A DNA stretch of 44,878 nucleotides, taken from Eubacteriales Family XIII. Incertae Sedis bacterium. Its GTDB lineage: Bacteria; Bacillota; Clostridia; Peptostreptococcales; Anaerovoracaceae. Of this stretch, positions 2,551-42,689 are shown piece after piece; position 1 is the first letter of the stretch, and every line of letters begins with the position of its first letter. The stretch is taken from NCBI GenBank assembly GCA_031266025.1, contig JAISBV010000148.1, positions 1-44,878 on the forward strand. Direction: 5' to 3'. The position numbers and the translations under genes were made by a program. Under the pieces are notes generated by a model. The model did not search any database and was not told where the DNA came from. It saw only the letters and a list, made by a program, of their open reading frames with translations.

Positions 2551-5300
2551 AATGGATCAAACCGCGCGACAATCAGATCATGCTGCTCGCCGCCGTCTTG
2601 ATGGCCGTTTTGATTTTGCGGCTGTTTGTGCTGACGATATTGCAGCACGACGAATGGACAGCGGCGGCCGACGACAACGATATGCGGAGCATCTATACGG
2701 TCGCTCCGCGCGGTGAGATATACGACCGCTACGGACGGCTTTTGGCGGGCAATCTGCCGAGCTTCACCGTGCAGTTCAGCAGGGGCAATATGCGCGACGC
2801 CGAGTTGAACGATACGGCCGCGCGCCTGATCGAGATATTGGAAGAGAACAACGAGGTATACATTGACAATTTCCCGATAATTTACGACAACGGGAATTTC
2901 AAGTATAAATATCAATTGGATATAGAGGATTGGCTGATATCGCAGGGTATGCCGCCTGATTTTTCGGCGGAGCAGGCTTTCGACGAGATTCGCAGACGCA
3001 ACAACATCGACGATGATTTAGACCCTTACGAGGCGCAGCTTGACATGCAGAAGCTCGGTGTTTCGCCGCCCATATCCGTCGTTCACATGAATTATACAAA
3101 GGATATGGACAAGACGGCCTTCCTGCAGCGTTACGGGCTCGAAACGGGCATTTCCGCGCGCGACGCGTTCTATGAGATACGCGATGATTTTGAAATCGAC
3201 GAATCCGTTCCGACGTCTACGGCCCGCAAGCTCATGGTTCTGCGCAACGAGCTGAAGCTGCTCGGATACAGGCAATACGTTCCGGCCAACATCGCCGCGA
3301 ACGTTTCCGACGCCACGGTCATGCAGATCGAAGAAATGGGCAACAGTCTCAAGGGCGTCAGCGTAGTGACCGAAACGATCAGATATTATCCGAACGGCAA
3401 TACGGCGAGCCATGTGCTCGGATATATGGGCAAGATATCCGAGTCGCTCAAGGAGCGATATGTGGATGAGCTTGGGTACAGGCCAACGGATATGATAGGC
3501 CTTGACGGCGTCGAAAAGAGCTTGGAAAGCACGCTCAAGGGCAAAGACGGCATCAAGGAGGTTCAGGTCAATTCCATAGGCGAGCTTAAAAGGCTGATAA
3601 GCGAACAGGTCGCCGAAAAGGGCAAAGACGTGTATCTCACCATAGACCTTTCCTTGCAAAAGGCCTGTGAAGAGATATTGGCAAAGGGGCTTTCTCGTCT
3701 GCAGAACGGAGAAGTATTTGAAAGTCAATGGGGCAATTACTCATACAGGGACGCTCAACCCAACGCGAATGTCGGTTCCATCGTCGTCCTTGACGTGGAG
3801 ACTGCGGAACCTCTCGCCATCGTCAACGCGCCGAGCTTTGATCCGAATCTGTTCGCCACGGGCATCAGCAATGAAGACTGGAACGCGCTGCAGAGCCAAA
3901 ACCCGCGCGATCTCCTTGCGCCCCTGCCGCTGTACAACGTGGCGGCCCGCACGGCCGTGCAACCGGGCTCGACGTTCAAGCCCATAACGGCTATCGCCGC
4001 GCTCGAATCGGGCCTTAACCCGAACACGCGTCTGTATGACGGGCGCTTCGTAACTGTGGGAAACAGGGATTATAAATGTTTGCTTTACAGCACGAACGGC
4101 GGCAGCCTCGGCAGCGTAAATCTCTTTGAAGCGCTTGAGGTATCCTGCAACTATTATTTCTTCGATATCGCGACGGGTATGGACTTTTACAATAATAAGC
4201 CGCTTTCATATCGGGGCTCCATAAATATAGACAAGATCACATCCTATGCCGAACAATTCGGTCTCGGACAGTATACGGGCATAGAGTTGGCCGAAACCGC
4301 CGCCGGCGCGCCGAACGCCGCCAAGAAGATGGAGATGACAAAGTCCCTGCTGAAACGCCATCTGTACGACAACGCGGAGGAATATTTTACGAGCGAGCTT
4401 CTTGGCAATTCGGCCATGCTTGGCGGCAGTATAGAGGAGATCGTGAGTTGGGCTGAGGAAAATCCCAAGCGTTCGGATATTATCGCGCGCATGCAGGATA
4501 TCGGTATAAAGCCGGATCAGATCAATCGAGTTGCGGATACATGCAAATCCACGTATTTCAATTTCGCCCAGTGGACGACGGGCGATGAGCTGAATATTTC
4601 GATAGGGCAGGGTGAGAACGCATACACGCCCTTGCAGATGGCGAATTATATCGCGACTATAGGCAACGGCGGCGTCAGAAACAATGTCAGTCTCGTGCGT
4701 GCCGTTGAGGGCGAGGGTATAAGGGAAAAGGAGCCGGGCGTAAAGGTCGAGCTCAGCGACGACGCGTTTCTCGGTTACGTAATCGAAGGCATGAAGCGCG
4801 TCGCGAGCGGTTCTCACGGCAGCCTGACAAGCCAATTCAGAGGTCTGCCCGTTTCCGTGGCCGCCAAGACGGGAACCGCGCAAAAATCGGGCTTCATTCA
4901 GCCTCCCGATGAGGTTGAGTATATAAAGGAGCATCTTGAGAGCATCGACGGCAGCTTGGAGTGGGAGACCGTCGAGGCCGAAATGCACAGGCTTACGGCG
5001 CTTTTGCCGGATATCTACACGTCCGAGAACAAAGCGGTTCGCAGGGCGGTCATCAATCTGAGCAGTTACAGCCCCGCGAAAACGGAGGAACGCATGGACG
5101 CGTTCAAGGACAGCTACAGACCGTTTTCATGGGTCGTGGCACTCGCGCCGGCGGACGATCCGCATATCGCGGTCGCGGTGCTCGTGTTTCAGGGCAACAG
5201 TTCTCTGAACGCCGCGCCTATTGCAAAGGAGGTAATAGCGCAGTATATGGAGCTTGAGAAGGAATATAAGGATTACAGTCTCGATACGGTGATCAATTGA
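2547..5300 (+). CDS. mrdA: Penicillin-binding protein 2 (elongation transpeptidase)
   Basis: Class B PBP, the D,D-transpeptidase partner of RodA in side-wall peptidoglycan synthesis. One N-terminal membrane helix (about residues 10-30) is followed by a dimerisation/pedestal region and then the transpeptidase domain. The active-site triad is visible: SxxK as STFK with Ser475, SxN as SCN at 533-535, and KTG at 774-776. At 917 residues it is longer than proteobacterial PBP2 but in the range seen in Clostridia; extra residues lie in the N-terminal region (about 90-210), between SxN and KTG, and just after KTG. It overlaps mreD by four bases. Its TGA stop is itself the start of a repeat that recurs upstream of tmcAL. 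Confidence 0.95.
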   Translation: MKWIKPRDNQIMLLAAVLMAVLILRLFVLTILQHDEWTAAADDNDMRSIYTVAPRGEIYDRYGRLLAGNLPSFTVQFSRGNMRDAELNDTAARLIEILEENNEVYIDNFPIIYDNGNFKYKYQLDIEDWLISQGMPPDFSAEQAFDEIRRRNNIDDDLDPYEAQLDMQKLGVSPPISVVHMNYTKDMDKTAFLQRYGLETGISARDAFYEIRDDFEIDESVPTSTARKLMVLRNELKLLGYRQYVPANIAANVSDATVMQIEEMGNSLKGVSVVTETIRYYPNGNTASHVLGYMGKISESLKERYVDELGYRPTDMIGLDGVEKSLESTLKGKDGIKEVQVNSIGELKRLISEQVAEKGKDVYLTIDLSLQKACEEILAKGLSRLQNGEVFESQWGNYSYRDAQPNANVGSIVVLDVETAEPLAIVNAPSFDPNLFATGISNEDWNALQSQNPRDLLAPLPLYNVAARTAVQPGSTFKPITAIAALESGLNPNTRLYDGRFVTVGNRDYKCLLYSTNGGSLGSVNLFEALEVSCNYYFFDIATGMDFYNNKPLSYRGSINIDKITSYAEQFGLGQYTGIELAETAAGAPNAAKKMEMTKSLLKRHLYDNAEEYFTSELLGNSAMLGGSIEEIVSWAEENPKRSDIIARMQDIGIKPDQINRVADTCKSTYFNFAQWTTGDELNISIGQGENAYTPLQMANYIATIGNGGVRNNVSLVRAVEGEGIREKEPGVKVELSDDAFLGYVIEGMKRVASGSHGSLTSQFRGLPVSVAAKTGTAQKSGFIQPPDEVEYIKEHLESIDGSLEWETVEAEMHRLTALLPDIYTSENKAVRRAVINLSSYSPAKTEERMDAFKDSYRPFSWVVALAPADDPHIAVAVLVFQGNSSLNAAPIAKEVIAQYMELEKEYKDYSLDTVIN

Positions 5301-5331
5301 GTAGTTTTGATTGAAATCTTTATGCAGTACC
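5297..5331 (+). repeat. Dispersed leader repeat, copy D (upstream of minD)
   Basis: Bases 5297-5321 (beginning TTGAGTAGTTTTGATTG) are an exact 25-base inverted match to 36095-36119 upstream of tmcAL. The similarity continues with small differences into a GCAGTA motif here, against GAGCAGTAAC in the reverse of the other copy. The first bases include the PBP2 stop codon. The element sits in the 56-base gap between mrdA and minD, just before the minD ribosome site. A diverged copy lies at 25716-25775. Function unknown. Confidence 0.75.
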
Positions 5332-5356
5332 AATTGAAGGAATTGAGGAAAATAAA

Positions 5357-7378: not shown

Positions 7379-7447
7379 ACTACTCAAATCCCACGTGATT
7401 TTTACCCGTTCGCAAGCTCCGGGCACGCGTACCCATTTCGGAACCTG
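7379..7447 (-). repeat. Dispersed leader repeat, copy B (upstream of rodA)
   Basis: Read on the minus strand, this segment shares CAGGTTCCGARATGGGTA and then CGTGGGRTTTGAGTAGT with the region just upstream of tmcAL (36144-36186). Between these blocks it carries 26 extra bases bounded by repeated GGGTA. Part of that extra segment (GCGAACGGGTRAAA) is shared with the copy in front of the M23 hydrolase gene (25716). It ends 12 bases before the rodA start codon. This links otherwise unrelated leader regions; function unknown. Confidence 0.72.
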
Positions 7448-7477
7448 AGAGATGATTTGTTTTTGGGAAAAGCGAGG

Positions 7478-12411: not shown

Positions 12412-12424
12412 TAACGGAAGGCCC

Positions 12425-12497
12425 GGGCGGGTTTGAAACCCGCCCCTACAAAAGGTCGCATACGGCAGTAGGTTCGGCGGTTTGAAACCCAAGAAAG
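12425..12497. repeat. Palindromic GC-rich intergenic repeat (REP-like)
   Basis: Between cheA and cheR, GGGCGGGTTTGAAACCCGCCC (12425-12445, arms of ten bases around one central G) is followed by a second partial copy of the same core at about 12476-12490 (GGCGGTTTGAAACCC). A relative on the other strand lies at 37459-37477. It can form a strong hairpin but has no T-run, so it is a dispersed repeat more than a typical terminator. It may still reduce read-through from cheA into cheR. Confidence 0.65.
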
Positions 12498-25715: not shown

Positions 25716-25775
25716 GCGAACGGGTGAAACCGGCGCGGCGTTCGGGTAGTCTTGATTGGCCTTTTAAGCAGTAAC
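25716..25775 (+). repeat. Dispersed leader repeat, copy C (upstream of M23 hydrolase)
   Basis: Begins one base after the ftsX stop. Its left part (GCGAACGGGTGAAA) matches the insert of the rodA copy. Its right part (GTAGTCTTGATTGG through TTTTAAGCAGTAAC) aligns with the exact repeat shared by minD and tmcAL, with roughly three quarters identity by eye. It ends before the ribosome site GGGAGG of the next gene. It thus bridges the otherwise different copies. Confidence 0.65.
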
Positions 25776-35584: not shown

Positions 35585-36083
35585 CGAGATCGTTGAAACC
35601 GCGTCGGGCGTGCCGCTGATGAAAAAGATTATCGTGGACAGCGCCGAGATACAGGATATCGTGCGGGAGATAAGGGTGGCGCTCCCGGACGAGATACAGC
35701 AGGCGCAATGGATAAAAGAGCAGCGTCAGAATATATTGGATGAAGGAAAAAAAGAGTACGAGCTCGTTATCCAAGACGCGAGACAGCAAGCTGATATCAT
35801 ACTCGACAAGAGCGAGATCATGACAAGGGCAAGAGCAGCGGCGAAGGAGTTGACATCGCAAACCGAAGCCAATGTAAGGCAGCTGAAATTGGACACCTAC
35901 GACTATATCGACAAGATATTGTTTGAATTCCAAGGAAAAATGGAGCAAATGAACGCTGCGTATTTCGGAGATATGTTCACGAGCGTGCAGCGCACGTTCG
36001 AAGGTATCAACCGAACGGTACAGGAAAACCGCTTGGAAATCAAGGATTTGGCCTATAAGACACACTTGGAAAACGACGATTAA
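35553..36083 (+). CDS. Coiled-coil protein, conserved downstream of coaD
   Basis: 176 residues, strongly helical. The N-terminal segment (LELLDELDEIVETASGVPLMKKIIVDSAEI) is followed by a long charged helix (IQQAQWIKEQRQNILDEGKKEYELVIQDARQQADIILDKSEI) with the look of an ATP-synthase b-subunit or DivIVA-type coiled coil. Such proteins are often labelled ATPase in Clostridia without evidence; no nucleotide-binding motif is visible here. Its ATG has AAAGG upstream and lies inside the coaD end. Its conserved position between coaD and tmcAL supports a real gene; function unknown. Confidence 0.8.
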   Translation: MKVLELLDELDEIVETASGVPLMKKIIVDSAEIQDIVREIRVALPDEIQQAQWIKEQRQNILDEGKKEYELVIQDARQQADIILDKSEIMTRARAAAKELTSQTEANVRQLKLDTYDYIDKILFEFQGKMEQMNAAYFGDMFTSVQRTFEGINRTVQENRLEIKDLAYKTHLENDD

Positions 36084-36084
36084 T

Positions 36085-36188
36085 GTTACTGCTCAAAGAT
36101 TTCAATCAAAACTACTCAAACGCCGCTATTGTTTTGTTCAGATCAGGTTCCGAGATGGGTAAAAAAGGCGTGGGGTTTGAGTAGTTAC
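36085..36188. repeat. Dispersed leader repeat, copy A (upstream of tmcAL), with inverted arms
   Basis: The left block (36095-36119) is the exact inverted partner of 5297-5321. AACTACTCAAAC (36110-36121) and GTTTGAGTAGTT (36175-36186) are perfect 12-base inverted arms, extended by GCC/GGC, enclosing about 53 bases. The segment 36144-36186 (CAGGTTCCGAGATGGGTA and CGTGGGGTTTGAGTAGTT) matches the rodA copy. The outer ends GTTACTGCTCAAA and TTTGAGTAGTTAC are imperfect inverted repeats, suggesting a small mobile (MITE-like) unit or a structured leader. Confidence 0.72.
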
Positions 36189-36191
36189 AAA

Positions 36192-37406
36192 TTGACGACA
36201 GACAAGAGGATAGTTGGGATTGTCGCTGAATACAATCCCTTCCACAACGGGCATCTCTATCACCTGAAACGGGCGCTTGAGCTTACGGACGCCTTCGGCA
36301 GCGTCGCCGTTATGAGCGGTAATTTCGTGCAACGCGGCGAACCGGCGCTTATCGACAAATGGCGGCGTGCGGAGACGGCTGTCAGGAACGGCGTCGATTT
36401 GGTGTTGGAGCTGCCGTTTTTGTATGCTGCGGGCAGCGCCGAATATTTTGCTTCGGGCGCCGTGCGTTTGCTTGACGCGCTTGCATGTGTCACGCATGTG
36501 GCTTTCGGCTGCGAAGAGGGCGAATTGGCGCCGCTCGCAGAGGCCGCCAACGTACTTGCTGCGGAGCCGCCTGCTTTCAAAGAGGGTTTGCGCGACGCGC
36601 TCTCGGCAGGGCGATCATTTCCGCGCGCGCGCGCGGAGGGCTTGCGCCGGGCGGCGGGCGACGCGCAGGCGCGGTTGCTCGACTTGCCGAATAATATACT
36701 GGCTATAGAATACCTGAAGCAGCTTACGCTCACAAAAAGCCGCATAGAGCCCGTCGCTGTAAAACGCGCCGGCGCCGGATATTTTGACGCCGATCCGTGC
36801 GTACGGATTGCCGGCGCCTCGGCCATAAGGGACATGCTGCTCACAGGCAGAAAGGACGAAGCCCTTGTGTATTTGCCGCGCGGCGGCGCCGATACGGCTG
36901 TTTTTCAAAGTTTCGACAGATATTTTACGCTCATTGCCGCCGTCGCGAGACTGCGATCACGTGAGGAGCTTCACGAGATCATGTCCGCGTCCGAAGGCAT
37001 AGAAAATTGCCTGATACGCGCGCTTGACGGCGCTTCCGATATGCCGGCCCTGATCGCGGCTGTAAAGAGCGCGCGTTATACGGAGACTCGCGTCCGTCGC
37101 TTCCTGCTGCATACGCTTTTCGGCGTGACGCGCGGCAAATTCGCCGAGTCGGACGCAGCTTGGCCGGGCTACGCGCGCGTGCTCGCTCTCTCCGAACGGG
37201 GCGGCGAGATTCTGCGCATTGTTAAGGCGTACGCGAATATCCCCGTCGTTACGAACATGAACAAGCAGCGGCCGGGCGCGCCGGTTGCGGCTCTGCTCGA
37301 TCTTGACGTGCGGGCGGCCGACATTTACAATTTGATGGGCGCGGGCTCCATGCACGAAAGGTCGGATCACAGGATGCGGCCCTTTTTGTTCTTGAATCCC
37401 GTATAA
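36192..37406 (+). CDS. tmcAL: tRNA(Met) cytidine acetate ligase TmcAL
   Basis: Forms N4-acetylcytidine at the wobble position of elongator tRNA-Met using acetate and ATP (Bacillus YlbM). The nucleotidyltransferase motif is at the start: IVGIVAEYNPFHNGHLYHLKRA; then AVMSGNFVQRGEPALIDKWRRAE and FGCEEG. The ORF track starts at 36129, but the 21 extra codons are encoded by repeat copy A and do not resemble the family, so TTG at 36192 (or TTG 36177) is preferred; no strong ribosome site helps the choice. The last part (HERSDHRMRPFLF) is normal. Acetate use links it functionally to ackA next door (inference). Confidence 0.9.
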   Translation: MTTDKRIVGIVAEYNPFHNGHLYHLKRALELTDAFGSVAVMSGNFVQRGEPALIDKWRRAETAVRNGVDLVLELPFLYAAGSAEYFASGAVRLLDALACVTHVAFGCEEGELAPLAEAANVLAAEPPAFKEGLRDALSAGRSFPRARAEGLRRAAGDAQARLLDLPNNILAIEYLKQLTLTKSRIEPVAVKRAGAGYFDADPCVRIAGASAIRDMLLTGRKDEALVYLPRGGADTAVFQSFDRYFTLIAAVARLRSREELHEIMSASEGIENCLIRALDGASDMPALIAAVKSARYTETRVRRFLLHTLFGVTRGKFAESDAAWPGYARVLALSERGGEILRIVKAYANIPVVTNMNKQRPGAPVAALLDLDVRAADIYNLMGAGSMHERSDHRMRPFLFLNPV

Positions 37407-37458
37407 TTAACCGGTAAAATACATGTAAAACGTCTGTACTGAGTTCGTCATTCGCAGC

Positions 37459-37499
37459 GATGGGTTTCAAACCCGTCCGGATTTGTTACTGCTTAAAAG
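37459..37499. repeat. Palindrome and repeat fragment upstream of ackA (copy E)
   Basis: GATGGGTTTCAAACCCGTC (37459-37477) is a near-perfect palindrome of the same core as the cheA-cheR repeat. Eight bases later GTTACTGCTTAAAAG (37485-37499) matches in reverse the right end of copy C before the M23 gene. These lie just before the ackA ribosome site. Together they show that the two repeat types cluster in the same short leaders. Confidence 0.55.
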
Positions 37500-38876: not shown

Positions 38877-38888
38877 TACTTGCAACTC

Positions 38889-39054
38889 GGTACACTGTAA
38901 CCCCTAAAAGTTGTCAGTAATCGGCGAGGATTTTTTTCGCCGGGCAAGGCGGAGGGTTCTGTTGATACCGGGCAGTATCAACAGGTTCTTTTCAACGCAG
39001 CCCGACGGAAAAAAGACCGTCGATCAGTAAAGCTTTAGGGGTTACAGGGTACTC
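38889..39054. mobile_element. 166-base terminal-inverted-repeat element with three hairpins (MITE-like)
   Basis: Outer arms of about 22 bases (38889-38910 and 39033-39054) are inverted repeats sharing GTAACCCCTAAA / TTTAGGGGTTAC and flanking GTAC. Inside are three consecutive hairpins: CGGCGA/TCGCCG (38922-38927 / 38937-38942), CTGTTGATAC/GTATCAACAG (38959-38968 / 38975-38984) and GACGG/CCGTC (39004-39008 / 39017-39021). The unit has no ORF and ends 22 bases before the MCP start. It is either a non-autonomous mobile element or a structured RNA with a closing stem and three arms. Confidence 0.6.
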
Positions 39055-39076
39055 AGTAGGGGAAGGGATAACTGCT

Positions 39077-40888
39077 ATGAAAAATTTAAAAATATCGGTG
39101 AAGATGATGACAGCCTTCGGCATCGTTGTGATTTTGACGCTCGCAATGGGGATTATTTCGATTCGTTCCGCAAGCGGTATCGAAAAATCGTACACCGAAA
39201 TGGTCGCTGAGGATACAAAAGCCCTGAGCGATCTCGGCGCGGCGCGCGCGGCAATTAGGGGCGAACGCTCTGAGCTTAGAGCCATCATGATATACGCCGC
39301 GCTCGACGATTCGGCCGGCATCAGTAAATCAGTCGAAAATTATCAGAAGAATAAATCTGTGTTGAAAACAAGCATGGACAGTTACAGCACGGGTCTGAGA
39401 ACAGAAGAGGGTCTCGGATATTACAGTGTATTTGAAAAGGAGTACGAAGATTATACCAAAGCCGCAGAGATATTTTTGGCCGCCTTGGATTCGGCGGAAC
39501 TTGAACGTCTGTACGCGCTTATGAAAGATTGCTCTGATGAGGTTGACAGTTCCATCGAAGCTATAGACGGTATGGAAGCCGCGAAGTTTCAAAACGTACA
39601 GGTGAGTAATGACAATATGACGAAACGCTCCACTGCGGGTATAATGATCACTGTAGGTATTTTGATAGCGGTGACTGTCGTATCAATAGGATTGGCCGTA
39701 TTTATTTCGGCCATGATTACAAAGCCGCTTGGTCTTATGAGGGATTTGCTGCAGCAGGTGGGCGAATCGGGCGATCTCGAATTCGGCGACACGCAGATGC
39801 GCAGAATAAGGGAAGAAGCGGCGTTTAAGGATGAGATAGGGCAGTCTATAGCGGCATTTGTCAAGATGATGGAACAGTTCGTTTACTACGGAAAATGTCT
39901 CGGCATGGTCGCGGAAAAGGATCTTACCGTAAATGTGAAAACCTTGAGCGGCAAAGATACATGCGGCGTCGCGCTGAAAAACATGTTGGCGAATCTCAAT
40001 TCCATGTTCGGCGAAATCAATATCTCCGCTTCTCAGGTGGCATCCGGTTCGTCGCAGATAGCGCAGGCGTCGACAAATCTGGCGACGGGCGCGGGCGAAC
40101 AGGCCGCTACCATTCAGGAATTTACCGCCACGGTGTCGGAGGTTAACAGGATGGCGGAGGATAATACAAAGATGGCTACGGAAGTGCTGAAAGACGTGCA
40201 GGAATCGGGCAGTCTGATGAACGAGTGCACAAACGAGATGAACAGGATGCTGCAAGCCATGCAGCTAATAGACGAGAAATCGCAGCAGATATCCAATGTT
40301 ATCAAGGTCATAGACGACATAGCGTTCCAAACGAATATACTGGCTCTGAACGCGGCCGTGGAAGCCGCCCGCGCGGGACAGCACGGAAAGGGCTTCGCCG
40401 TCGTTTCGGACGAGGTGCGAAACTTGGCGTCGAAATCGGCCGGCGCGGCCAAGGAAACGGCGGAGTTGATCGAAAGCAGTCTTCGCAGCGTCGCCGAAGG
40501 CAATATGATCGTGTGCAAGGTGAACGACAGCTTGCAGGCCGTAGGCTCAATCTCCGACAGGAACGCCGAATCCGTGGAAAAGCTGTACAACGGCTCGACT
40601 TCGCAGAGCAGTTCCATGTCGGAGATCAATACGGCCATCTTGCAGCTGTCCTCCGTGGTGCAGGCCAACTCCGCCACGGCGCAGGAAACGGCGGCGTCCT
40701 CGCAGGAAATGTCCGCCCAGTCCGTCATGCTGAACGATATAGTGAGCCGCTTCAAGCTGTCGGAAGACGCGCGCGCTCAAGGATGGACGAATCCCGGCTC
40801 AGGCGGTCATGCGAAAGCAAACGCCGCCCCTGCGAGCGACAAACCCGAGAGCGTGATTTCACTTTCCGACAGCAACGATAAGTATTGA
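39077..40888 (+). CDS. Methyl-accepting chemotaxis protein
   Basis: 603-residue transmembrane receptor that controls CheA. A first membrane helix (about 9-30) is followed by an extracellular four-helix-bundle sensor (about 31-186, 4HB_MCP type, with IRGERSELRAIMIYAA), a second helix (about 187-213), a HAMP-like region, and the cytoplasmic signalling domain with the near-invariant hairpin tip DDIAFQTNILALNAAVEAAR and GKGFAVVSDEVRNLA. The end is a hydrophilic tail without an NWETF-type CheR-binding motif. The ligand is unknown. GGGGAAGGG lies before the ATG. It stands alone, apart from cheA and cheR, between ackA and the trpB unit. Confidence 0.95.
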   Translation: MKNLKISVKMMTAFGIVVILTLAMGIISIRSASGIEKSYTEMVAEDTKALSDLGAARAAIRGERSELRAIMIYAALDDSAGISKSVENYQKNKSVLKTSMDSYSTGLRTEEGLGYYSVFEKEYEDYTKAAEIFLAALDSAELERLYALMKDCSDEVDSSIEAIDGMEAAKFQNVQVSNDNMTKRSTAGIMITVGILIAVTVVSIGLAVFISAMITKPLGLMRDLLQQVGESGDLEFGDTQMRRIREEAAFKDEIGQSIAAFVKMMEQFVYYGKCLGMVAEKDLTVNVKTLSGKDTCGVALKNMLANLNSMFGEINISASQVASGSSQIAQASTNLATGAGEQAATIQEFTATVSEVNRMAEDNTKMATEVLKDVQESGSLMNECTNEMNRMLQAMQLIDEKSQQISNVIKVIDDIAFQTNILALNAAVEAARAGQHGKGFAVVSDEVRNLASKSAGAAKETAELIESSLRSVAEGNMIVCKVNDSLQAVGSISDRNAESVEKLYNGSTSQSSSMSEINTAILQLSSVVQANSATAQETAASSQEMSAQSVMLNDIVSRFKLSEDARAQGWTNPGSGGHAKANAAPASDKPESVISLSDSNDKY

Positions 40889-40957: not shown

Positions 40958-40964
40958 TGCTCTA

Positions 40965-41273
40965 AACCTATGACGAGGAAGTAAAATCGCGAAGCGGTCT
41001 TAGCATCCGGCAAATATTTTCAGCCGGGCGCTTACAGCGAGTTCGGGACGGTGGGAGCCGAGCGGATGCAGCCGCGAACAAATGGGCCTCTGAGGGCAAA
41101 GCGAAAGGATGTACATCCGAGTAGCGGCGACGCTTGATCCCGCGTTATCGGGATAGGGGTGTGATGGCGCCCCGCCGAGAGGGTGCGCGTTTGCGCATCA
41201 AACAAGGTGGCACCGCAGGCTGTAATAATACGCCTGTCCTTGTACTTTTGCAGTACATGGACAGGCGTTTTTG
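40965..41273 (+). promoter_or_regulatory. T-box riboswitch, tryptophan-specific
   Basis: Leader RNA that reads the charging state of tRNA-Trp. Stem I begins with GACGAGGAAGTAAAA; the distal loop elements GGGACGGTGGGAGCCG follow; the specifier region GAACAAATGGGCCTCTGAG offers TGG (41083-41085), the Trp codon. The T-box itself is AACAAGGTGGCACCGC (41201-41216). It ends in an intrinsic terminator: ACGCCTGTCC.TGTAC pairs with GTACA.GGACAGGCGT (41230-41245 / 41253-41268, one mismatch), then TTTTG. Uncharged tRNA would stabilise the antiterminator and allow trpB expression. This fills almost all of the 412-base gap before trpB. Confidence 0.95.
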
Positions 41274-41300: not shown

Positions 41301-42689
41301 ATGAGTACAAAAGACAATATCCCCTACAAGATTTATTTGAACGAAAATGAGATTCCCAAGGCATGGTACAATGTACGCGCGGATATGAAAACGGCGCATC
41401 GTCCGATTTTGCATCCGGGAACCCTAAAGCCCGTAACGGAAGCAGATTTGAGTCCCGTTTTCTGCGACGAGCTTGTCAAGCAGGAGCTGAACGATAAGGA
41501 CAGGTATATCGAGATACCTACGCCCGTACTTGATTTCTACAAGATGTACCGTCCTTCGCCGCTCGTGCGCGCCCGCTTTCTCGAAAAGGCGCTCGGAACT
41601 CCCGCGCGCATATATTACAAGTACGAAGGCGGCAATACCTCCGGCAGCCACAAGCTCAATTCCGCCATAGCTCAGGCATATTACGCAAAAGCTCAGGGTC
41701 TGAAGGGCGTAACGACCGAAACGGGGGCGGGGCAGTGGGGCACCGCGCTCTCAATGGCTTGCGGCTACTTCGATCTGGATTGTCTTGTGTATATGGTGAA
41801 GGTTTCGGCGGCGCAGAAGCCGTACCGCAAAACAGTCATGGAGACCTATGGCGCGAAGGTTACGCCGTCGCCGTCCGATACGACGAATATCGGCAGGAAG
41901 ATGCTTTCGGACAATCCCGAAACCACAGGCAGTCTCGGCTGCGCCATTTCGGAGGCCGTAGAGGTCGCCGTTTCCACGGACGGTTACAAGTATGTACTCG
42001 GCAGCGTGCTGAATCAGGTGCTGATCCATCAGTCCGTCATCGGGCTTGAAGCCAAGTCAGCGCTCGAAAAATGCGACGAATATCCGGATATTCTGATCGG
42101 CTGCGCCGGCGGAGGTTCAAATCTCGGCGGCCTTATGGCGCCGTTTATGGCCGACAGACTGGCCGGTAAGCGGTCGCCGCGTTTCATAGCCGTCGAGCCC
42201 GCATCCTGTCCGTCCATGACGCGCGGACGTTTTGCCTATGATTTTTGCGATACGGGAATGGTTACGCCGCTCGCGAAGATGTATACGCTCGGCGCGTCGT
42301 TTATCCCCGCGTCGAATCACGCCGGCGGTCTGCGTTACCACGGCATGAGCCCCATATTGTCGCAGCTCTATCATGACGGATATCTGGACGAGGCCAGGGC
42401 CGTTGGGCAGATCAGCGTGTTTGAGGCCGCGAAGCTGTTTTCAAAGGTGGAGGGATTGCTGCCCGCTCCCGAATCCGCTCACGCCATACGCGTAACGATC
42501 GATGAGGCGCTCAAGTGCAAGGAGAGCGGCGAGGCGAAGACGATACTGTTCGGTTTGACAGGCACGGGTTATTTTGATCTCGGGGCCTACGCCCAATATA
42601 ACGACGGCACGATGGAAGATTATATCCCGACCGATGAGGATCTCGCTATAGGTTTCGCCGGTCTGCCGGATTTGAAAGGCGCAGAGTAG
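41301..42689 (+). CDS. trpB: TrpB2-type tryptophan synthase beta chain (TrpB-like)
   Basis: PLP enzyme that condenses indole with serine. At 462 residues it is longer than TrpB1 (about 400) and has the N-terminal extension and FYKMYRPSPLVRARFLEKALG segment of the TrpB2 group. The PLP lysine is K118 in GGNTSGSHKLN; the phosphate loop is GCAGGGSNLGG; the catalytic glutamate region is VTTETGAGQWG. No trpA or other trp gene is adjacent. With the Trp T-box in front, it may scavenge indole, since TrpB2 enzymes do not depend on TrpA (family knowledge plus inference). AAAGGA lies before the ATG. It ends directly against the convergent purF. Confidence 0.93.
   Translation: MSTKDNIPYKIYLNENEIPKAWYNVRADMKTAHRPILHPGTLKPVTEADLSPVFCDELVKQELNDKDRYIEIPTPVLDFYKMYRPSPLVRARFLEKALGTPARIYYKYEGGNTSGSHKLNSAIAQAYYAKAQGLKGVTTETGAGQWGTALSMACGYFDLDCLVYMVKVSAAQKPYRKTVMETYGAKVTPSPSDTTNIGRKMLSDNPETTGSLGCAISEAVEVAVSTDGYKYVLGSVLNQVLIHQSVIGLEAKSALEKCDEYPDILIGCAGGGSNLGGLMAPFMADRLAGKRSPRFIAVEPASCPSMTRGRFAYDFCDTGMVTPLAKMYTLGASFIPASNHAGGLRYHGMSPILSQLYHDGYLDEARAVGQISVFEAAKLFSKVEGLLPAPESAHAIRVTIDEALKCKESGEAKTILFGLTGTGYFDLGAYAQYNDGTMEDYIPTDEDLAIGFAGLPDLKGAE

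What the first reader, a model, noticed from the sequence alone, without database searches (positions are those of the whole stretch)
36085..36188. Shared leader module connects five genes: minD, rodA, M23 hydrolase, tmcAL and ackA
Pairwise overlaps chain the copies together. minD and tmcAL share a 25-base block; tmcAL and rodA share CAGGTTCCGARATGGGTA plus CGTGGGRTTTGAGTAGT; rodA and the M23 gene share GCGAACGGGTRAAA; the M23 copy also aligns to the minD/tmcAL block; ackA has a 15-base end fragment. Every copy lies between the previous stop and the next start codon. Three of five precede envelope or division genes. This mosaic suggests either a recombining intergenic repeat family or a reused 5' regulatory element.
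Basis: partly seen in the sequence, partly recalled or inferred. Interest (0 to 1): 0.72.

Follow-up and report, generated by a model that had tools for sequence, protein, structure and literature searches.

The report
Miniature transposon repeats between genes
The shared "leader" in front of five genes is debris and one shortened copy of a small jumping-DNA element that occurs at more than 70 places in this bacterium; it is not a common gene switch, but it carries a hairpin tip that is also found, unexplained, in unrelated bacterial phyla.

Summary
The shared blocks are real, but they are pieces of a dispersed, roughly 175-bp miniature transposon (MITE), not a shared 5' leader. The tmcAL copy (36085-36188) is an internally deleted element. 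The minD, rodA and M23 copies are fragments, two of them antisense to their gene, and the ackA "copy" is a 14-nt end. A covariance model finds about 75 places in this 2.6-Mb genome. Elements have ends GTWACTRCTCAAA and exactly 8-bp target duplications (8-mer flank identity 64% against 29% expected). Relatives have tmcAL without the element. Ends and duplication length match the ISBst12 group of the IS66 family (PMC12898284). Copies fall in all gene orientations and before unrelated genes, including rplD and rpsM, so a common regulatory leader is not supported. Two features go beyond an ordinary MITE. The element folds into one long, strongly covarying hairpin. Its tip, C-GGA-RCGUAC...GUACGU-GA-G, recurs in up to 84 copies per genome in Nitrospirae and Proteobacteria, and in a few copies in Acidobacteria, Rokubacteria and other Clostridia. 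In Nitrospirae the ends and target site (CTAG) differ. The tip is not in Rfam. Its function is unknown; I infer recognition of the folded strand.

The parts
36085..36188 (+). Internally deleted copy (104 bp between ends) of the MITE upstream of tmcAL: both termini (GTTACTGCTCAAA / TTTGAGTAGTTAC), hairpin arms, no hairpin tip
   Evidence: CM R1 hit 91 bits, E 1.2e-17; ends flush with the 8-bp duplication; empty site in relatives
36077..36084 (.). Left target-duplication remnant CGATTAAT (ancestral GGATTGAC; now carries the TAA stop of the upstream gene)
   Evidence: comparison with uninterrupted relative L249 ...GGGGATTGACGACAGAC...
36189..36196 (.). Right target-duplication remnant AAATTGAC
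36192..37406 (+). tmcAL (HIGH nucleotidyltransferase) downstream of the element
   Evidence: Pfam PF05636 E 4.7e-117
5297..5332 (-). Left-end fragment (outer and inner end motifs) in front of minD, antisense to minD; overlaps the stop codon of the upstream PBP gene
   Evidence: E 1.8e-9
7379..7448 (-). Right-half fragment upstream of rodA, with the optional 27-bp side module CGCGTGCCCGGAGCTTGCGAACGGG
   Evidence: E 1.8e-9
25727..25775 (-). Left-half fragment upstream of the M23 peptidase gene, antisense to it
   Evidence: E 1.8e-9
37484..37497 (+). Solo left-end motif TGTTACTGCTTAAA upstream of ackA
   Evidence: 1 mismatch to the 13-bp end; pattern excess 208 v 19 in the genome

Best explanation
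The blocks are copies and decayed pieces of one non-autonomous DNA transposon family (a MITE). The intact element is about 174 bp: left end GTTACTGCTCAAA, a 26-nt step to a second copy of the end motif, then one long imperfect hairpin ending at the right end TTTGAGTAGTTAC. SHOWN: multi-copy spread, inverted ends, exact 8-bp target duplication, empty sites, intergenic placement, covarying stem and conserved tip. INFERRED: an IS66-family transposase of the single-ORF ISBst12 group, acting in trans, cuts or copies it at the 11-13-bp ends. INFERRED: insertions survive where they do little harm, between a stop codon and a Shine-Dalgarno sequence, including inside ribosomal-protein operons, and then decay to solo ends and internally deleted copies. 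INFERRED, weaker: the hairpin tip is kept because something recognises the folded strand (RNA or single-stranded DNA) during spread or in the host.
For: About 75 distinct places in the genome by CM, 99 BLAST pieces. 8-mer flank identity 64% against 29% expected, only at length 8, with 9 perfect 8-bp duplications among 38 elements. Precise empty site between the upstream gene and tmcAL in G001-G004 and G010. End motif in 208 places against 19 in the control. ISDge4, an ISBst12-group IS66 element caught transposing, has ends GTGACTACTCAGCA / GTAACTGCTCAGCA and an 8-bp repeat (PMC12898284); 10 of the first 11 bases equal the window element's ends. A related MAG with 20 tip copies holds an IS66 transposase gene (NF033517 E 8.5e-68) bounded by GTTACAGGTCAA(G/A)GGTG ends. 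Covariation: 97.2% of cells paired, 31 pairs with double changes against 18 in shuffles. Other small elements in the genome carry the same ends with a different inside (L053, L076).
Against: No IS66 transposase gene was found in the window's own genome or its congeners; all are MAGs of 69-82% completeness and repeats assemble badly. The L262 IS66 ends match less well (8 of the first 11) and its own 8-bp duplication is imperfect (5 of 8). No transposition was observed. A weak sense bias (34 v 19, P = 0.053) leaves room for some benefit as a transcribed hairpin.
Confidence: 0.88

Rival explanations
1. A reused 5' regulatory element (riboswitch, protein-binding leader or mRNA-processing hairpin) that controls the downstream envelope/division and other genes in cis.
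For: Many copies abut a Shine-Dalgarno and start codon (e.g. L008, L019, L030, L031). Long stable hairpin, z about -8.5 to -10. Strong covariation. Sense copies outnumber antisense 34 to 19.
Against: 19 antisense and 11 convergent placements; two of the five window copies are antisense fragments. tmcAL relatives lack it. Downstream genes have no common theme. The window copies lack the conserved tip. Covariation can arise by template switching (PMC8794818).
Confidence: 0.07
2. The stem covariation reflects arm-to-arm correction of a DNA quasipalindrome by replication template switching, with no function of the folded form at all.
For: Stem segments switch as blocks between subfamilies. L060 and L044 have a right arm rewritten, including an indel, to mirror the left arm. 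A 27-bp module sits at mirrored positions, 7 times in the left arm only, 6 in the right only, never both. In the own genome G-U and A-C cells are equally frequent, 37:36.
Against: An unpaired or wobble centre (G-U, U-U, U-G at columns 74-76/146-148) is invariant in 67 of 67 copies although correction would erase it. The tip with its GGA and GA bulges is conserved across phyla. In relatives G-U exceeds A-C 52:7.
Confidence: 0.3
3. REP/RAYT-like or integron-like element moved as single-stranded hairpin DNA by a Y1 or tyrosine enzyme.
For: Long imperfect hairpins with conserved extra-helical bases and a conserved tip resemble what such enzymes read.
Against: Inverted ends with an exact 8-bp target duplication are the mark of DDE transposition, which these systems do not leave.
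Confidence: 0.04

Closest known systems
IS66 family, ISBst12 group (e.g. ISDge4 of Deinococcus geothermalis, PMC12898284)
   Same: Ends GTRACTRCTCA, 8-bp target duplication, single-transposase group
   Different: The element has no gene; it is 174 bp and almost entirely hairpin; no IS66 gene detected in the own genome
Prokaryotic MITEs such as Chunjie (Geobacter uraniireducens, 178-235 bp, intergenic, one in an operon), QMITE2 (Coxiella, about 190 bp, 7-9 bp repeats) and Correia elements, as reviewed in PMC10969869
   Same: Size, terminal inverted repeats, direct repeats, intergenic placement, many decayed copies, long hairpin transcript
   Different: Second copy of the end motif 26 nt inside the left end; hairpin tip conserved across phyla; paired side-module insertions. 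Sequence identity with these elements was not tested
REP / BIME / REPIN repeats with RAYT transposases
   Same: Dispersed intergenic palindromes
   Different: Here target duplications and transposon ends; the 5'-GTAG/GGAG hairpin grammar was not recognised
Rfam structured RNA families
   Same: Covarying hairpin with a conserved tip
   Different: No family matches at gathering or relaxed thresholds, apart from sub-threshold eukaryotic miRNA models on a hairpin

Membership tests
MITE (non-autonomous DNA transposon) | Short, no transposase gene of its own, many copies | tested here: met
   104-342 bp elements without a gene; about 75 places
MITE (non-autonomous DNA transposon) | Terminal inverted repeats | tested here: met
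   GTTACTGCTCAAA / TTTGAGTAGTTAC
MITE (non-autonomous DNA transposon) | Target-site duplication of fixed length | tested here: met
   8 bp only; 64% v 29% identity; 9 perfect of 38
MITE (non-autonomous DNA transposon) | Empty sites in relatives | tested here: met
   upstream gene-tmcAL gap uninterrupted in five relatives
MITE of the IS66 family (ISBst12 group) | Ends and duplication length as in IS66/ISBst12 | tested here: met
   10 of the first 11 end bases equal ISDge4's; both make 8-bp repeats
MITE of the IS66 family (ISBst12 group) | Autonomous IS66 element with the same ends in the same genome | tested here: inconclusive
   None in own or congeneric MAGs; one in related MAG L262 with similar ends
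MITE of the IS66 family (ISBst12 group) | Mobilised in trans by that transposase | not testable with these tools
   needs a transposition assay
Riboswitch / cis-regulatory RNA leader | Consistent sense orientation upstream of a coherent gene set | tested here: not met
   34 sense, 19 antisense, 11 convergent, 10 divergent; mixed functions
Riboswitch / cis-regulatory RNA leader | Covarying secondary structure | tested here: met
   not specific to regulation
Known Rfam family | Score above a family's gathering threshold | tested here: not met
REP / RAYT system | No target duplication; Y1 transposase gene flanked by the repeat | tested here: not met
   8-bp duplications present; RAYT gene itself not searched

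The most novel reading that the evidence does not exclude
The hairpin tip C-GGA-RCGUAC-N4-7-GUACGU-GA-G is a conserved recognition module that has travelled across at least five bacterial phyla while its flanking transposon ends changed: IS66-like ends with 8-bp duplications in Clostridia, GAGCCTGTCC ends at CTAG sites in Nitrospirae. It would be a 'universal' passenger motif bound, as folded RNA or single-stranded DNA, by a widespread host or mobile-element protein that decides where and how such miniature elements spread.
Probability: 0.3. Interest if true: 0.75.

Novelty: new variant of a known kind. Interest (0 to 1): 0.42.

Why it matters
It turns an apparent shared regulatory leader into a well-delimited mobile element, which matters for anyone reading regulation from intergenic conservation. 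It adds a high-copy MITE family with IS66-type ends. It also exposes a hairpin tip, absent from Rfam, that recurs with nearly identical sequence in miniature elements of distant phyla; what reads that tip is now a testable question.

Tried and rejected
1) Rfam at gathering and relaxed thresholds: no family. 2) IS66 transposase in own genome and congeners: none. 3) Looking for an autonomous partner next to other end-motif elements (L200-L205): no transposase among the ORFs inspected, though those ORFs were not scanned against Pfam. 4) Geobacter metallireducens 'class 4' multicopy sites as the same thing: they are CCYTC pentanucleotide repeats, not this. 5) Viral contigs and plasmids: no copy of the tip or of two Nitrospirae elements. 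6) Longer target duplications in the Nitrospirae copies: none beyond CTAG. 7) Sequence text search of papers for the tip: only unrelated hits. 8) G-U against A-C asymmetry as a proof of an RNA form: mixed, own genome 37:36, others 52:7.

Full report
WHAT IS THERE. Searching the window's own genome (G000, 2.6 Mb in 162 contigs, 82% complete) with this stretch gave 99 significant pieces. A covariance model built from 67 full copies found about 75 distinct places after removing antisense shadows. The 13-bp end motif GTWACTRCTCAAA with at most one mismatch occurs 208 times against 19 for the reversed control, so many solo ends and fragments exist besides. The window copies are one internally deleted element (tmcAL), three half-element fragments (minD, rodA, M23) and one solo end (ackA). 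This explains the 'chained pairwise overlaps': different fragments of one element overlap in different parts.

ANATOMY. An intact copy is about 174 bp: left end GTTACTGCTCAAA, a spacer, a second copy of the end motif (ACTACTCAAACGCC) 26 nt inside, then a single long imperfect hairpin whose 3' foot is the right end GGCGTGGGGTTTGAGTAGTTAC. Folded as RNA it is a continuous rod, -80 kcal/mol, z about -8.5 to -10; the deleted tmcAL copy keeps only the foot, z -3.2. Some copies carry extra modules. A 27-bp piece sits at mirrored positions of the arms, 7 times in the left arm only, 6 in the right only, never both. Other copies have larger branching inserts on both arms (L019, 342 bp).

IT IS A TRANSPOSON. 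For 38 copies with clear ends I compared the flanks: identity between the last 8 bases before the left end and the first 8 after the right end is 64%, against 29% between unrelated copies. No other length from 3 to 11 stands out, and 9 are perfect. The gene pair around the tmcAL copy is conserved in five relatives, and there the gap is uninterrupted. G003 reads GGGGATTGACGACAGAC, and the window has (C)GATTAAT-element-AAATTGACGACAGAC, i.e. the same target with a decayed duplication; the upstream gene's stop codon changed from TGA to TAA in the process. These are shown facts.

WHICH TRANSPOSON. ISDge4, an ISBst12-group IS66 element caught transposing in Deinococcus geothermalis, has ends GTGACTACTCAGCA and GTAACTGCTCAGCA and made an 8-bp repeat (PMC12898284); 10 of the first 11 bases equal either end of the window element. 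A related MAG with 20 copies of the hairpin tip (G076) holds an IS66 transposase ORF (PF03050; NF033517, 8.5e-68) bounded by GTTACAGGTCAA(G/A)GGTG inverted ends. No IS66 gene was seen in the own genome or congeners, all incomplete MAGs. IS66-type mobilisation in trans is therefore well supported by ends and duplication, but inferred.

NOT A SHARED LEADER. Among copies with a gene called on both sides in the own genome, 34 lie sense and 19 antisense between co-directional genes, 11 between convergent and 10 between divergent genes; only 2 lie in ORFs (sense v antisense P = 0.053). Two of the five window copies are antisense to their gene. Of 30 downstream genes scanned, products range over an S-layer-homology protein, thiolase, electron-transfer flavoprotein, histidine kinase, CheB, DapB, flagellin, MotB, YbeY and ribosomal proteins L4 and S13; no envelope or division theme stands out. 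Placement next to Shine-Dalgarno sequences and stop codons is what survival of insertions in a compact genome would give. That copies persist just upstream of ribosomal-protein genes suggests they do not act as terminators there; this is inference.

STRUCTURE AND ITS MEANING. On the 67-copy alignment 97.2% of cells form standard pairs (87.5% in shuffles, 31-43% when slid), 31 of 51 pairs show double changes (18 in shuffles), and the covariation score is 0.312 against 0.137. I see signs of that: block-wise switches of stem segments, and arms rewritten to mirror each other in L060 and L044. Against pure correction, a G-U/U-U/U-G centre is invariant in 67 of 67 copies, and the tip is conserved.

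THE TIP. The motif CGGARCGTAC-N7-TACGTGAGRAG matched 73 stretches of the 84,980-species collection outside the own genome. In the genomes behind those hits a slightly relaxed form occurs 84 and 68 times in two Nitrospirae, 83 times in a proteobacterium, 57 times in the own genome, 8-23 times in several Family XIII MAGs and 1-4 times in Acidobacteria, Rokubacteria, Sinanaerobacter, Emergencia and others; the reversed control gives 0 everywhere. In nearly all of the examples I folded it caps a long hairpin with the same bulges, CC-GGA-RCGUAC...GUACGU-GA-GG; in a second Nitrospirae type (L136) the minimum-energy fold differs. In Nitrospirae the ends (GAGCCTGTCC...GGACAGGCTC) and the flanking CTAG differ, with no longer duplication, but the element again has an extra end-like copy 26 nt outside the hairpin. 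So the tip is shared while the transposon ends are not. It is absent from viral contigs at exact match and two such elements were absent from plasmids. What reads the tip is unknown; a protein or enzyme acting on the folded strand is my inference.

VERDICT. Observation confirmed; repeat-family reading supported; regulatory-leader reading not supported. The element is a new MITE family with IS66/ISBst12-type ends, hence a new variant of a known kind, with one interesting loose end, the cross-phylum hairpin tip.

Noticed in passing
window 40961-41244 (+): T-box leader, sub-threshold in Rfam (50.9 bits, E 1.5e-9; gathering 93), upstream of a TrpB-like gene at 41301-42689.
   Followed up: partly
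window 38885-39057: Another inverted-repeat pair, 24 nt at 88% with 125 nt between (ACTCGGTACACTGTAACCCCTAAA...), just upstream of a chemoreceptor gene at 39077: possibly a second, unrelated MITE-like element.
   Followed up: no
window 12423-12452 and 37451-37480: Dispersed palindrome GGCGGGTTTGAAACCCGCC in two places, one right next to the ackA end fragment.
   Followed up: no
L076 324-486, L053 78-536, L058, L064 (own genome): Other small elements with the same GTWACTRCTCAAAGGTATG ends but different insides; parts of L053 recur in all six related MAGs.
   Followed up: partly
L019 1501-1842; L068 407-656; L065 218-507; L080 3177-3397: Long versions of the element with branching side hairpins; a similar ACGGACAGCG module appears beside the tip in L130 and L160 from other genomes.
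   Followed up: no
L123 and genome G067 (proteobacterium SKS4.bin33): 83 copies of the same hairpin tip; ends and target duplication not worked out.
   Followed up: no
L052, L060, L066, L089, L042, L044: Neighbouring genes end inside the element, apparently using stop codons of its terminal TTTGAGTAGTTAC sequence.
   Followed up: no
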